From positions 1-64,000 of the forward strand of contig JAFIEY010000203.1 of assembly GCA_020832345.1 (NCBI GenBank): DNA of 64,000 nt, read 5' to 3'. The position numbers were made by a program, and so were the translations under genes. This DNA comes from Cryomorphaceae bacterium. GTDB taxonomy: Bacteria > Bacteroidota > Bacteroidia > Flavobacteriales > Schleiferiaceae. Within the stretch, counting starts at the first letter, position 1; every line of letters starts with the position of its first letter. Below are positions 149 to 4,989 of this stretch, piece by piece. The notes under the pieces are model-generated. The model was not told where the DNA came from. It did no database searches and saw only the letters and a program-made list of their open reading frames with translations.

Positions 149-274
149 GAGTCCACTCCAAAAAGGATGATTTCAATCAAAATCGAGGGGATTTTTGAAC
201 CGGAGCAAGTGAGGATTCAAAAGTCTATCGACAAGGAAGATTTTGGCAGAAAGGTACTTTTTAGTGCAGACTCA
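149..274 (+). repeat. MITE-like TGAGTC repeat, copy A (126 bp)
   Basis: This copy begins GAGTCCACTCC and ends GCAGACTCA, matching the inverted ends of the family. It lacks the central CTAAC..GTTAG hairpin found in the 144-bp copies. Its right end supplies the stop codon (272-274, minus strand) of the broken lipase-like gene. No target duplication is visible, so it may be old. Confidence 0.85.
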
Positions 275-2748
275 AGTTTGACTATTGAAATCTCCCCAAA
301 GCATAAAACCATCGTGTTTGTCGTTTGCTCCGGCGCCCGGCGGTAAATCTACATCGAGGTGGTGGAGATGGGCTGCACCGGGAATACTGATGTGTTTCCC
401 TGGGTGTATCAAAATCTTGCAACCCCAAAGTTTTACATTTTCAAAAGTGTGATGGTTGTAGATGCTGCTCATTTTGGGCGAAAAATTGCGCTTCACCTCC
501 AGCATGACCTGATCGTATGGGAAAGATCCCTCTATTTCAAATTTAGCATTCTGCCCGATGTCCCAAAAATCATCGAATACCGCCGGGTAAATCCCTTGAT
601 CCATAATAATTCTGCCGTTTCCGGAAAAGGTAAAAGTAGCGTTGTCGCCTATGGTGACTTTGCCGCGGATTTCGAGGATGGAGTTGGGGCCGACTAGTTC
701 AATTTGAGCGCCTTCTAAAAACTTAATGTCACCTCCATCTTCAATTATTAATTTTGAATCGTTATTTACTATAATTTTACCTCCATTTGCGATTATTAGT
801 GTGGCACCTTTATCCACTGTTAATTGTGAGTTTGGATTTATTTCTAATGTACCGCCTAAATTTATGCTTACAAAAGACAACTCCCTTATAGTAACAATTC
901 CAGTTTTATTGTCATCATGTCCTACTATTAATTTACCATACTCATCTAGCACAACTCCTCCTAATCCATTACAACCATGTGTAATATCCATCTGAAAATT
1001 TTCTGTATTGGCTTGCGGGTTTGCAACATCTGAAACATCACCAATTCGATCGTCGCAGTTTACACAAATAACTCCATCAGTACTTGAGCTTCCTGAAACT
1101 TCAATTAAACGTGTAATTCTATCTGTAGTTGTAGTTTTTAACCCGTTATTTTCATTCACTCCAAAGTTAAATTTTTGACTAATAATACTTGGTGTGTTAT
1201 TAATATCGCTTAAATGAGAAGAAAAAATTTCCTCAAAAACCTGCATATTACTAGGACTAAAATCATGATGCAATTCATTATCAGGTGCTTCTTGAGGATC
1301 TTGATATAGACTTGGGTCTGCTGCTTTTACCCTATGAAAGGGGGTAATGCTGTTTTGAACCACTAAGGACTCATCAAATGAATTATATGGTGTGTCATAC
1401 AAAGAAGTTAGGTTAAGAGCACTTACTGTTGGAATAAAACAAAAGCTTTTCACAAGATTAGGGGGACATGGAAATTGCGATTCGTCAATACCTTCTCCTG
1501 TAAATACATCTATATCATATACTCCACCAGGTGCTGCATCAAATGATGGTGAAACATTTCCAAAAGCCCTATATGAAGTTATTGTTACTCTTGCCGCACC
1601 CCACAAAACAGTAGTATAAAGTCTTCCATAATAAATATCATTATTTCCAGAAGACGCCGTAGCCTTAACCTGAAAGGTTGCTCCATTCTTAACGCCTATA
1701 CTTGTTTTTATACTTATATATCCTGCAACATAACTCCAAAAGTTACTCTCAATATCATTCCAAATATAATCCTCGCAATTTTTGATATTTAATAGAAAAT
1801 CGCCTGGATTAAATCCTTCTTGACCCACACCAGTTCTAGATCCACTAGCGATCGCCACATTTTTATAGGTATTCTGAGGTAATCCTAAATTGTGATATTC
1901 TTGCTGAAAACTTTCATAATCATTATGATGATATATAACCATTTGTCTGGTAGCCGGCTTATTCAATACTTCTATAGCATCAGACAGTTCTTCAATTTCG
2001 TCTCTAAATATATATTGGCCACCTACTGTCATATTCCATAAATGATTTAAAAAAAGCCTGAAGCCCCATGGAATATTAGCTCCGAGATGGGGGCTATCAA
2101 AGCTTATGTAATGTTCTACATCGTGTACTTTTTCTTCTACTTCCATGGTGCGTAGAGCATAGCGCCCTACCAAGCCTCCCATGCTTATACCAAGCAACTG
2201 ATTAGGAAAACTGCTATTGTTCTTTGCTTTTTCCTCGTTTATCCATTCTATAGCTGCCATTACTGCATACGCATTCTCGCGCATGTCTCCTGCCCCTTGG
2301 TCAAAATCTAAATATACAATGTCATAACCCTGCTCCCTCAGCTCATCCATTAATTGGTAATAAAAAGGTGGCTCAAAATCCCGTTGATAAATTCTAAGGT
2401 CTTCTCTAAAATCGCGATACCATAAATCACCAAATTCGTCGGGGTTAAAGCCTTCTATGACTATCAATGGTTTTACGAGTTTATGATTGCCGCAGCCGTA
2501 GCCTATTTGAATGGAAAGCCCTAGATCTAAGCTACGGCCTGATGTTACGTATGTATTAAAATCAGGATTAAAAGAGTAGTATCCTCCAAAAGTTGAAATT
2601 TGCTGACCTGATTTAAGTGTCATTCGTGAAGTGGATACTCTTACTATACTGTTATCATAAGTGCACCGTACTTGTACATACTTACTGCCGTAGTTATTCC
2701 AAGTTATCGGTATAACTTCGTTTAAGCTTACTGTTCTATACCCTAACC
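272..2748 (-). pseudogene. Exported lipase-like protein, 3' part (interrupted)
   Basis: This is the downstream part of a gene split by the element at 2749-4343. Reading upstream of the first ATG (2623), the frame stays open and protein-like up to the insertion junction. The segment contains an alpha/beta-hydrolase nucleophile elbow (GISMGG) followed by a conserved FDSPHLGA stretch, as in bacterial lipases and PGAP1-like esterases. The last third is a glycine/isoleucine-rich repetitive stretch with the look of a beta-solenoid. Joined to 4344-4989 with one copy of the 6-bp duplication it makes an uninterrupted frame of 1039 codons. The protein ends within repeat copy A, so a C-terminal sorting domain, usual for such Bacteroidetes exported proteins, is absent and was probably cut off. 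An internal start at 2623 could in principle give a 783-residue product, but it would lack a signal peptide. Confidence 0.85.
2743..2748. repeat. Target site duplication, left copy
   Basis: CTAACC lies directly left of the element and is repeated directly right of it. The bases before and after differ between the two copies, so the duplication is exactly 6 bp. Confidence 0.85.
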
Positions 2749-4343
2749 TGGACGAGCCAGAACCAAACAGGTTTCAGATGATTTATTAGTTTTGCATCAT
2801 GGACTTACTAACGACAACACACAGCAAAAAAATATCTGGTGTAATAAGTTGTTACGACCGGATTGTAGTTACAGGAACCCTTCCCACAATTTGTTTTAGT
2901 CAAGGCATGACCAGCTTTCTTTATCAAAAAGGAATTCGGATTTTTGACTATCCACAATTTGCTCAACCGTTGAAGGAAGAGATTCGTCAGAATGCAGAAA
3001 GAATTGCCTCTGAAAATGGTATTGAGATTGAGTTTGTTTCCAAATCCCATATTCGCAAGGAAGATTTGGTATCTAAAGTGTTAAAGAAGCGCGGAGACCA
3101 TACAGGCATTGTGCATATACTCTCAGCCATGGAGTCATGTCCGAGTTACACGCCTTGGCACGATAAGAAAACTGGTAAAACCTTTTTAAAAGGCAGCCAG
3201 AGTAAGTGCTTACACTATTACTTTTATTTCATCGATGAGTATTTGGGTTTTGGCTATGTACGCGTACCCACTTGGTGTCCATTCCGTTTACAGGTATATT
3301 TTAACGGTCATAATCTACTGAAAAACCGCCTAAACGAATTAGGTGTCGGCTATACGATGATTGATAATGCCTTTGACAGTATAGAGGATTGGGAAAAAGC
3401 TCAGGAATTGGCCGACGACATTAATGTAAAAAAAATACATCAGCATCTAAATAAATACGCTAAACTATTTTGTCCAGCACACCAACATTTTGGACAAGTC
3501 TATCATTGGAGTATTATGCAGGCAGAATACGCTACAGACATTGTGTTCAAAAAGCAGGAACACCTACAGGAATTATATCAGGAACTCGTCTCTACGGCTA
3601 TACACGTAGTAAAACCGGAAAACATTGCCACCTTTCTGGGGAAAAAACTCGATCCAAGGTATAAAGGCGAGGTAGGGAACAATTATAATATCCGAATAGA
3701 AGGGAGTAGAATAAAGCATTCCATGGGGAAGAATTCCATAAAGATGTATGATAAGTTCAGTAAAATTTTAAGAATAGAAACCACGACAAATAATGTGAGT
3801 TTTTTTAAACACTACAGAGAGGTAGAACATCGAAATGGCACCAGATCTAAAAAAGTAACTGCGATGAAAAAAAACATCTATAGTCTCATGCCGCTAAAGG
3901 ATAGCCTCAAAGCTTCCAACCGGAGGTATCTTGAGTTTATCTCTGGCATAGATAACAAATTTCTAGGCCGCAAGAGACTTGAAAAGGTGACTCAATCTAA
4001 AGAGAATAACAATCGCAATTACAAAGGTTTTAACTTCTTTAATAAAAAGGATACAGAGCTTTTATTAGTCCTGTTAAGCGGTGAGTTTAATATCTCAGGC
4101 TTTCAAAACAAGGACATCCGAAAAAAACTCAAGTATCTCAACAGTGGGCAAATATCACGCTTACTCAAACGTCTAAGAGTGCATGGCCTGATTAAGAAGG
4201 TGGGAAACACCTACAAGTATTATCTAACTAAGCTTGGAAAACAAGTCTTGTTGACCACTGAGAAAGTAAAGGAAATGGTATGGATTCCAGCTTTGAACTA
4301 TTAATTTCCTGCCAAAAAATGACAGGATTTGAATGATAAGGTA
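2749..4343 (+). mobile_element. 1595-bp insertion element with one ORF and 6-bp TSD
   Basis: The element is defined by what it interrupts: removing 2749-4343 and one CTAACC restores one open frame across the lipase-like gene (local protein DDGLGYRTV, 3117 nt, a multiple of three). It starts TGGACGAGCC and ends GATAAGGTA, with no obvious terminal inverted repeats. Each end has a small hairpin (CTGG/CCAG at 2748-2760; CCTGCCA/TGACAGG at about 4308-4326). Each also has a weakly similar direct motif beginning ACAGG about 20 bases from the end. It carries one gene. Confidence 0.85.
2799..4304 (+). CDS. Putative transposase of an unnamed family with C-terminal winged helix
   Basis: The 501-residue protein fills the insertion element. 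From memory it belongs to a widespread family of about 450-500 residue proteins usually annotated as hypothetical or MarR-like; conserved stretches include SCYDRIVVTGTLP, RVPTWCPFRLQ, YATDIVFK and RIKHSMGKNSIKMYDK. Residues about 425-490 form a winged helix-turn-helix (SGQISRLLKRLRVHGLIKK then YKYYLTKLGKQV), which explains the MarR label. I cannot place a DDE triad, a Y1 HUH motif or a serine-recombinase motif. The role in transposition is inferred from its being the only gene in an element with a clean target duplication. It reads opposite to the gene it disrupts. Confidence 0.75.
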   Translation: MDLLTTTHSKKISGVISCYDRIVVTGTLPTICFSQGMTSFLYQKGIRIFDYPQFAQPLKEEIRQNAERIASENGIEIEFVSKSHIRKEDLVSKVLKKRGDHTGIVHILSAMESCPSYTPWHDKKTGKTFLKGSQSKCLHYYFYFIDEYLGFGYVRVPTWCPFRLQVYFNGHNLLKNRLNELGVGYTMIDNAFDSIEDWEKAQELADDINVKKIHQHLNKYAKLFCPAHQHFGQVYHWSIMQAEYATDIVFKKQEHLQELYQELVSTAIHVVKPENIATFLGKKLDPRYKGEVGNNYNIRIEGSRIKHSMGKNSIKMYDKFSKILRIETTTNNVSFFKHYREVEHRNGTRSKKVTAMKKNIYSLMPLKDSLKASNRRYLEFISGIDNKFLGRKRLEKVTQSKENNNRNYKGFNFFNKKDTELLLVLLSGEFNISGFQNKDIRKKLKYLNSGQISRLLKRLRVHGLIKKVGNTYKYYLTKLGKQVLLTTEKVKEMVWIPALNY

Positions 4344-4349
4344 CTAACC
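4344..4349. repeat. Target site duplication, right copy
   Basis: CTAACC directly follows the element end and matches 2743-2748. Confidence 0.85.
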
Positions 4350-4989
4350 CATCGTCAAAATTAATTTCGATTTCGGTGAGCTCTTCTCCTGTATTTGTAA
4401 ACATCAAAGTGCTATCTACCATGAATGATAAAGAAAATGAGGGTGTTTCAGCCGTATCGGAAAACTCAGTAATCACAGGGCATGCAACAAATGCAATAGA
4501 AGAGGTGTATGGGCTTTCGCTTTGATTAGCCTGATCGTATAGTTTACCTCCACTTTCATATATTAGCGATGTTACTAAGGCGCTGTCAGGCTTAAAATGA
4601 TGATAGCTGTAGTTCATAATACCGATTGGTATGTTTGTGTCAGGGCTTATATCCTGAACATTTTCTTTCCACAGCTCTTTATTTGGCAGACTATAGACTG
4701 AAGAAATAGCGGCACGATTAAGCGTGCCGTATGAGGCCATGAAGTTTTCCCATCTGTGCAGGGTGTCGTGCTGACCAGTACCATCAAACAAGGAGATATC
4801 GATGGTAGGGAAACTTCTGTTTAACAATAAACCTGTAGTAACATCGGATAAATCGAGATGCTTAAAAAGACTATCCATTTGTTGCTCAAAAGGAATGTCA
4901 ACAGAATCTACTATGGTAAGCTTGGGCATCTGTGCTTGTACTGATAGGCTTGCCAAGACAAGAGTGATCAATGTAATAAATTGTTTCAT
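4344..4989 (-). pseudogene. Exported lipase-like protein, 5' part (interrupted)
   Basis: This is the N-terminal part of the gene continued at 272-2748. It begins with a signal peptide (MKQFITLITLVLASLSVQAQ). About 195 residues of an uncharacterised exported region follow, ending in INFDDGL, where the insertion falls. After the junction the frame runs a few codons into the element and stops at 4228, so the product would be about 253 residues without the hydrolase domain. It lies 12 bp downstream of the lipoprotein gene at 5002-5571 and is probably cotranscribed with it. Confidence 0.85.

What the first reader, a model, noticed from the sequence alone, without database searches (positions are those of the whole stretch)
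2749..4343. Clean insertion element carried by a family not usually called a transposase
Seen: removing 2749-4343 and one copy of CTAACC rejoins the lipase-like gene in one frame of 3117 nt (1039 codons), with DDGLGYRTV across the join. The element holds only the 501-residue ORF with a C-terminal winged helix. Known: related proteins are, as far as I recall, labelled hypothetical or MarR. Inference: the family is a transposase or a recombinase of a new type, since I see no DDE, HUH or serine motif and no terminal inverted repeats.
Basis: partly seen in the sequence, partly recalled or inferred. Interest (0 to 1): 0.82.

Follow-up and report, generated by a model that had tools for sequence, protein, structure and literature searches.

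The report
Jumping gene with unrecognised transposase family
A 1.6-kb jumping gene has cut a lipase-like gene in two; its enzyme, filed in databases as 'hypothetical' or 'regulator', belongs to a widespread unrecognised transposase family that probably moves single-stranded DNA using a plasmid-replication type of tyrosine enzyme rather than any known transposase chemistry.

Summary
Removing 2746-4346 (1601 nt) restores a 1039-codon gene that aligns without a gap across the join to a same-family homologue. The element holds one 501-aa ORF. It has no terminal inverted repeats, and no Pfam or NCBIfam family matches outside a weak C-terminal winged helix. A genome scan found 241 relatives; the 80 fetched span about ten phyla. 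Nearly all share ends: target CCTA, then a left end A(C/G)-stem-(5 nt)-stem-AACCAAA with covarying stem, and a right end TAAGRKACTA. Multi-copy genomes carry 100% identical copies at unrelated sites, with empty sites in related species and 83-140-nt derivatives carrying only the two ends. It is therefore a real insertion-sequence family. The 6-bp CTAACC 'duplication' is not a true one; only CTA is shared systematically. The AlphaFold model has a TBP-like crescent fold matching inovirus Rep_trans initiators, which a Rep_trans control also hits. Invariant residues match the Rep_trans active site: D20, QxE243xA, KxY317xK, RxE327. Profile-profile comparison with Rep_trans is not significant, so membership is not claimed. 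Best reading: a non-HUH tyrosine transposase working like IS200/IS605 (inserts 3' of a short target, one strand, circle intermediate). Mobility is shown; chemistry and strandedness are inferred.

The parts
2742..2745 (+). Target tetranucleotide CCTA in host DNA (left cleavage site)
   Evidence: CCTA in 47 of 53 distinct elements at this place (profile); present in empty alleles
2746..4346 (+).
   Evidence: End consensus of about 70 relatives; identical-copy comparison; join restores host gene
2748..2760 (+). Left-end hairpin CTGG-ACGAG-CCAG
   Evidence: Stem covaries in relatives: 99.2% of cells paired, 12 cells changed on both sides, 0/500 shuffles reach it; folds as ssDNA, z -2.05
2761..2773 (+). 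Conserved AACCAAACAGGTT 3' of the hairpin; a possible second small hairpin in this copy
   Evidence: LE profile; fold
2799..4304 (+). Transposase ORF, 501 aa
   Evidence: Only long ORF; 241 relatives in genome scan; model pLDDT 86.8
2856..2858 (+). D20, proposed metal ligand (Rep_trans motif N')
   Evidence: 57/57 in A2
3525..3527 (+). E243 in Q241xE243xA245xD247, proposed metal ligand (motif I, RxDxAxD in Rep_trans)
   Evidence: E invariant in 57/57 and in 10/10 of the divergent set
3747..3749 (+). Y317 in K315xY317xK319, proposed nucleophile (motif III, RxYxK)
   Evidence: 56/57 (Cys in L098) and 10/10 of the divergent set
3777..3779 (+). E327 in R325xE327, proposed metal ligand (motif IV, RxE)
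   Evidence: 57/57 and 10/10
4044..4295 (+). C-terminal winged helix (about residues 416-499)
   Evidence: Weak HTH/MarR/HxlR Pfam matches across members; MarR folds in Foldseek
4307..4327 (+). Right-end stem TCCTG...CAGGA (this copy; not general in the family)
   Evidence: fold z -1.87; family mean z -0.16
4335..4346 (+). Right-end terminal motif GATAAGGTACTA; last four bases ACTA = right cleavage site
   Evidence: RE profile: CTA invariant (by the search pattern), TAAG positions 82-95%
4347..4989 (-). 5' part of the interrupted lipase-like gene
   Evidence: join and tblastn
272..2745 (-). 3' part of the interrupted lipase-like gene
   Evidence: Weak Palm_thioest/DUF676 matches; join

Best explanation
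The 501-aa protein is the transposase of a widespread, previously unrecognised insertion-sequence family. It most likely nicks one DNA strand with a tyrosine (Y317) and metal-bound acidic residues (D20, E243, E327) on a TBP-like, Rep_trans-type crescent beta-sheet, not an HUH or DDE fold, with the winged helix helping to bind DNA. It recognises the left-end hairpin and the right end, cuts after CCTA on the left and after ACTA on the right, joins the right end to the left end as a circle, reseals the donor, and inserts the circle 3' of a new CCTA, leaving no target duplication. Shown: mobility, exact ends, target specificity, no duplication beyond the shared CTA, small end-only derivatives. Inferred: fold class (fairly strong), catalytic residues (good), single-strand circular pathway (likely, not shown).
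For: Mobility: 100% identical copies at unrelated sites in several genomes (3, 5 and 5 copies); 30 and 23 matches, fragments included, in two genomes; empty sites in relatives at the exact predicted join, e.g. GTAGTATATACCTA|AAAAGT in L170 and L176; join restores the host gene. Ends: conserved in about 70 loci; covarying left hairpin; 53 left-end pattern hits against 1 for the reversed pattern in ten genomes; 83-nt and 140-nt derivatives with both ends and no ORF, one pair alike at two sites. Circle or tandem junction GGGACTA|ACCCGG in L058. Enzyme: model of pLDDT 86.8 hits inovirus proteins A0A345N421 and A0A345N1K7 and TBP folds; a Rep_trans control model hits the same two at E=4e-7 and 1.4e-7 and shares six further hits. 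Motif order and strand placement match published Rep_trans motifs RxDxAxD, RxYxK and RxE (PMC4797284, PMC5714925) with invariant residues. Mechanism analogue: IS608 inserts precisely 3' of TTAC, which stays in the left flank, uses subterminal hairpins and makes a circular junction (PMC5934647).
Against: Profile-profile comparison with Rep_trans alignments is not significant (probability 0.04% and 0.1%), and Foldseek E-values against PDB do not pass 0.001. Two other tyrosines (Y141, Y143) are as conserved as Y317. There is no general right-end hairpin, no consistent strand bias against GC skew (17 of 36), and no strict guide-target pairing (11 of 47 CCTA elements lack AGG). The L058 junction comes from a MAG contig whose 77-nt repeat may reflect assembly k-mer structure. 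A double-strand recombination with a CTA crossover would leave the same junctions.
Confidence: 0.66

Rival explanations
1. A double-strand site-specific recombinase (functionally like IS607 or IS110): a circle recombines with the target across a short CTA core, with no single-stranded intermediate.
For: CTA is shared by both junctions and by the RE-LE junction, as expected for a crossover core; no duplication; asymmetric ends without inverted repeats.
Against: No serine-recombinase, RuvC or tyrosine-recombinase family matches. The predicted fold is the TBP-like crescent of single-strand nickases. A covarying hairpin two bases from the cleavage point suggests extruded or single-stranded DNA. 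This copy has only 53 nt and 42 nt of non-coding DNA, too little for an IS110-type bridge RNA (size from general knowledge).
Confidence: 0.17
2. Replicative rolling-circle transposition, IS91/Helitron-like: the Rep_trans-like enzyme nicks one end, host replication displaces the strand, and the strand is cut at the other end.
For: Rep_trans enzymes are rolling-circle initiators; IS91 also lacks inverted repeats and target duplications (PMC5714925); high copy numbers.
Against: Ends are precise on both sides in the copies compared and I saw no one-ended products with captured flanking DNA. No IS91-type family match.
Confidence: 0.13
3. The ORF is a MarR/ArsR-type regulator carried as a passenger, moved by another element's transposase.
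For: C-terminal winged helix; one relative is annotated ArsR regulator.
Against: The ORF is the only gene of elements 1591-1925 nt long in many genomes. The conserved part is the 400-aa N-terminal region with an active-site pattern. No other transposase gene lies within the ends.
Confidence: 0.03
4. Not a mobile element: assembly chimera or an old domain insertion in the lipase gene.
For: Single copy in its own genome.
Against: Same ends and targets across phyla, identical multi-copies, empty sites.
Confidence: 0.01

Closest known systems
IS200/IS605 family (IS608, ISDra2; Y1 HUH TnpA)
   Same: Short element, no inverted repeats, no target duplication, insertion 3' of a short fixed target kept in the left flank (CCTA versus TTAC), a preferred base after the cut, left-end hairpin, RE-LE junction, small end-only derivatives.
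   Different: Transposase about 500 aa with winged helix, no Y1-TnpA family match and no evident HUH motif; hairpin only 2 nt from the cut; no general right-end hairpin; no strict guide pairing; no TnpB.
Rep_trans (PF02486) initiators, MOBT relaxases and inovirus Reps
   Same: Predicted TBP-like crescent sheet; motif order D, [RQ]x[DE]xA, [RK]xYxK, RxE on matching strands; shared Foldseek neighbours.
   Different: No sequence-profile similarity; metal ligand is E243 not D; no E three residues after K319; serves an insertion sequence rather than a plasmid, phage or ICE.
Rep-Arvir / DUF7845 archaeal initiators (RepSNJ2; PMC13107129)
   Same: Distant Rep_trans-like N-terminal domain followed by MarR-like winged helix; both hit A0A2N9QVX7 in Foldseek.
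   Different: RepSNJ2 replicates a virus genome and uses a KHYYM motif; no transposition reported in the paper sections read.
IS91 / ISCR / Helitron (Y2 HUH)
   Same: No inverted repeats, no target duplication, asymmetric ends, fixed target.
   Different: HUH-YY enzyme of another family; different ends.
IS110 and IS607
   Same: No inverted repeats (IS607 and some IS110); circle intermediates; short shared core (general knowledge).
   Different: DEDD/RuvC-serine or serine-recombinase enzymes; not matched here.

Membership tests
IS200/IS605 | Y1 HUH transposase TnpA | tested here: not met
   No Pfam or NCBIfam transposase match; fold hits are TBP/Rep_trans-like, not HUH
IS200/IS605 | Insertion 3' of a short fixed target, retained in left flank, no duplication | tested here: met
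   CCTA left flank; empty sites
IS200/IS605 | Subterminal hairpins at both ends | tested here: inconclusive
   Left end met; right end not general
IS200/IS605 | Guide sequences pair with cleavage sites | tested here: inconclusive
   AGG opposite CCT in 36 of 47 CCTA elements, but exceptions
IS200/IS605 | Single-stranded circular intermediate | not testable with these tools
   Only an RE-LE junction in one MAG contig
Rep_trans (PF02486) | Sequence match to the family profile | tested here: not met
   The window protein has no PF02486 match and it is not among the 25 most frequent families of the 57 members; hhalign not significant
Rep_trans (PF02486) | TBP-like crescent catalytic domain | tested here: met
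   Model and shared Foldseek neighbours with a Rep_trans control; individual E-values modest
Rep_trans (PF02486) | Three acidic ligands and catalytic Tyr in motifs N', I, III, IV | tested here: met
   D20, E243, Y317, E327 invariant or nearly so, in order and on matching strands; E replaces D in motif I; no 3D superposition could be made
Rep_trans (PF02486) | Nicks ssDNA/supercoiled origin forming 5'-phosphotyrosine | not testable with these tools
   needs biochemistry
IS91 | HUH-YY Rep-like transposase | tested here: not met
   no family match
IS110 | DEDD RuvC-like transposase plus non-coding bridge RNA region | tested here: not met
   no family match; 53 and 42 nt non-coding only
DDE insertion sequences | Terminal inverted repeats and target duplication | tested here: not met
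   no inverted repeat between the ends; empty sites show no duplication
MarR/ArsR regulators | Stand-alone winged-helix regulator | tested here: not met
   winged helix is only the last ~85 residues
Any ISfinder family (including ISNCY) | Match to a registered IS | not testable with these tools
   ISfinder not on hand; NCBIfam has no matching model

The most novel reading that the evidence does not exclude
A new catalytic class of transposase: a non-HUH, Rep_trans-like tyrosine nickase has independently evolved IS200/IS605-style single-strand transposition, and the family is spread over about ten bacterial phyla under names such as 'hypothetical' and 'ArsR regulator'.
Probability: 0.57. Interest if true: 0.88.

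Novelty: new variant of a known kind. Interest (0 to 1): 0.8.

Why it matters
Known transposases fall into few chemistries (DDE, DEDD, serine, tyrosine recombinase, HUH Y1/Y2). A Rep_trans-like one would add a class, show convergence on single-strand transposition, and link plasmid replication initiators to insertion sequences. Practically, hundreds of genomes carry this element unannotated, some with more than 20 copies or fragments, so repeat masking, pseudogene calls and 'regulator' annotations can be wrong there. The compact ends (about 30 nt and 45 nt) and fixed target make it easy to test.

Tried and rejected
Group II intron link: L006 has a domain-V match 95 nt after the ORF, but none of 12 other sources does; a neighbouring intron. 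Cargo inside copies L245/L234: interior is assembly N, not cargo. Right-end hairpin as a general feature: not supported. Guide-target pairing: suggestive, not strict. Strand bias against GC skew: none overall, although one genome (G488) is 9 of 9. Rep_trans homology by profile comparison: not significant. PDB profile search: only MarR winged helices. Phages: no match; IMG/VR: one partial match. My first left-end finder demanded a perfect stem, so covariation was recounted on sites found without that demand. Empty site for pOLGA1: none found. Papers: no report of a Rep_trans-type insertion sequence in the library held.

Full report
Observation. The window holds one intact ORF (2799-4304, 501 aa) inside a lipase-like gene read on the minus strand. 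In a script I removed 2746-4346. The host gene reads through as 1038 aa plus stop, and its translation aligns without a gap across the join to L013 (34% identity, E=2e-164); L014 of the same genus also spans it. The gene is a secreted-looking hydrolase (weak palmitoyl-thioesterase/DUF676 matches), not a toxin. The element is single copy in its genome.

Family. Pfam and NCBIfam give only sub-threshold hits, chiefly to the C-terminal winged helix, and PHROGs only winged-helix regulators and weak unnamed families. Six of 396 genomes of the window's own phylum have it, and 9 of 399 of the phylum of G489, a Rhodocyclaceae genome. A scan of 84,980 species genomes found 241 relatives; the 80 kept come from Bacteroidota, Ignavibacteria, Acidobacteria, Desulfobacterota/Deltaproteobacteria, Nitrospirota, Planctomycetota, Chloroflexota, Bacillota, Pseudomonadota and Aminicenantes by record title. 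Plasmids hold a close relative on pOLGA1, annotated 'ArsR family transcriptional regulator' and with the same ends, and distant ones at 22-25% identity in Rhodococcus, Mycobacterium, Caballeronia and Paraburkholderia.

Ends. Flanks of the relatives show one architecture: host ...CCTA | A(C/G)-stem(4)-NNNAG-stem(4)-AACCAAAcAGG ... ORF ... TAAG(A/G)(G/T)ACTA | host, with A as the first host base in 83%. Elements are 1591-1925 nt and hold one ORF. The left stem comes as CCGG/CCGG, CTGG/CCAG, GCGG/CCGC, GTGG/CCAC and TCGG/CCGA. On sites found without requiring pairing, 99.2% of cells pair and 12 cells are changed on both sides, against a mean of 2.3 in shuffles and at most 1 when the partner is slid. 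A right-end hairpin is present in some copies, including this one, but is not general. No inverted repeat joins the ends.

Mobility. Copies in one genome are identical over the full length while flanks differ: three in a Rhodocyclaceae genome, five in an Anaerolineales genome, five in Dorea sp. 5-2. Lachnospiraceae of different names share copies with 2-6 differences in 1641 nt. Joined flanks of Lachnospiraceae insertions were searched in 250 related genomes. The L111 and L108 sites are found unoccupied at the predicted join (for example GTAGTATATACCTA|AAAAGT in L170 and L176; CCTG|ATGC in L165 and L169), and the L104 site is found with small local differences. A paralogous repeat in G613 likewise has CCTA followed directly by host sequence. 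So CCTA belongs to the host, nothing is duplicated or lost, and the window's CTAACC repeat is CTA plus chance.

Minimal derivatives. A left-end pattern gave 53 hits in ten genomes against 1 for the reversed pattern. Some hits have no ORF: L225 and L233 are about 83 nt and consist of a left end directly followed by a right end; L240 and L244 are about 140 nt, alike, and lie at two different places. The ends therefore seem sufficient in cis. In L058 the right end runs straight into a left end (GGGACTA|ACCCGG), a circle or tandem junction; the 77-nt repeat there equals a common assembler k-mer, so I take it as a hint only.

Target changes. Subfamilies differ in step at both ends: G488-B has CATA on the left and CATA on the right; G490-B has CTA and GACTA; G303 inserts after CATA within AT-rich arrays. 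Each has its own left hairpin. This suits recognition of the cut sites by the element's own DNA or protein, but strict guide pairing as in IS608 is not supported.

Enzyme. AlphaFold2 on 57 family members gives mean pLDDT 86.8: two beta-rich halves, then helices and a winged helix. Foldseek finds TBP (1mp9) and MarR folds in PDB, none below E=0.001, and in viral models inovirus proteins and TBP-like proteins. A control, a Rep_trans domain predicted here from 12 viral-contig sequences, hits the same inovirus-type entries A0A345N1K7 and A0A345N421 at E=1.4e-7 and 4e-7, and also shares A0A2K9R7J5, A0A345MP47, A0A515MGR4, A0A3Q9NN21, Q8QNL4 and A0A481YQW8; the entries without a name in the tables are called inovirus-type by their rank beside named inovirus Reps and by PMC13107129. 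Published Rep_trans active sites have D46, R140xD142xA144xD146, R189xY191xK193 and R212xE214 on separate strands of one sheet (PMC4797284; motifs also in PMC5714925). Here D20, Q241xE243xA245xD247, K315xY317xK319 and R325xE327 lie in the same order on strands 12-27, 236-250, 312-319 and 323-330. E243, K315, Y317, K319, R325 and E327 survive in all ten members of a set reaching down to about 22% identity. The one A2 member without Y317 (Cys in L098) differs from its neighbour L074 at 53 positions and may be dead. Against this, hhalign finds no profile similarity, and Y141 and Y143 are equally conserved. I therefore claim 'works like and is folded like', not membership.

Mechanism. The anatomy matches IS608: insertion precisely 3' of a fixed short target that stays in the left flank, subterminal hairpin, RE-LE circle junction, a preferred base after the cut (PMC5934647). 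With a nickase fold this makes one-strand excision, circle formation and insertion the leading model. A double-strand CTA-core recombination and an IS91-like replicative route remain possible; strand-bias analysis did not decide.

Known or new. No library tested names this family, and the full-text searches found no Rep_trans-type insertion sequence. ISfinder could not be searched. I rate it a new variant of a known kind (a single-strand-type insertion sequence with a different enzyme), with a fair chance that the enzyme class is categorically new.

Noticed in passing
   Followed up: partly
L006 1647-1722: Group II intron domain V/VI (Rfam RF00029) 95 nt downstream of a divergent transposase relative; not seen near 12 other sources.
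   Followed up: partly
L208-L211, L213-L215, L177-L180: Subfamilies with different targets at both ends (CATA, CTA) and different left hairpins; good material for learning how the cut site is read.
   Followed up: partly
L126, L127 (Caballeronia, Mycobacterium riyadhense plasmids): Divergent relatives (about 23-26% identity) are followed by a second hypothetical gene; their ends were not defined.
   Followed up: no
L225 1501-1583; L233 1501-1583; L240, L244: 83-140-nt derivatives carrying only both ends, likely mobilised in trans.
   Followed up: partly
L203-L211 (genome G488): All nine full-length copies looked at, of two subfamilies, lie on the G-poor strand, while six copies in G486 are evenly split.
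   Followed up: no
own genome, e.g. G000:C173, C26, C162, C104: The interrupted hydrolase belongs to a paralogous family with a shared C-terminal region (up to 84% identity).
   Followed up: no
window 2780-2800 and L032-L039 upstream of ATG: In Bacteroidota copies the sequence just before the start codon (TAACTTTA..ATG) resembles the -7 box of that phylum, hinting at leaderless mRNA (motif from memory).
   Followed up: no
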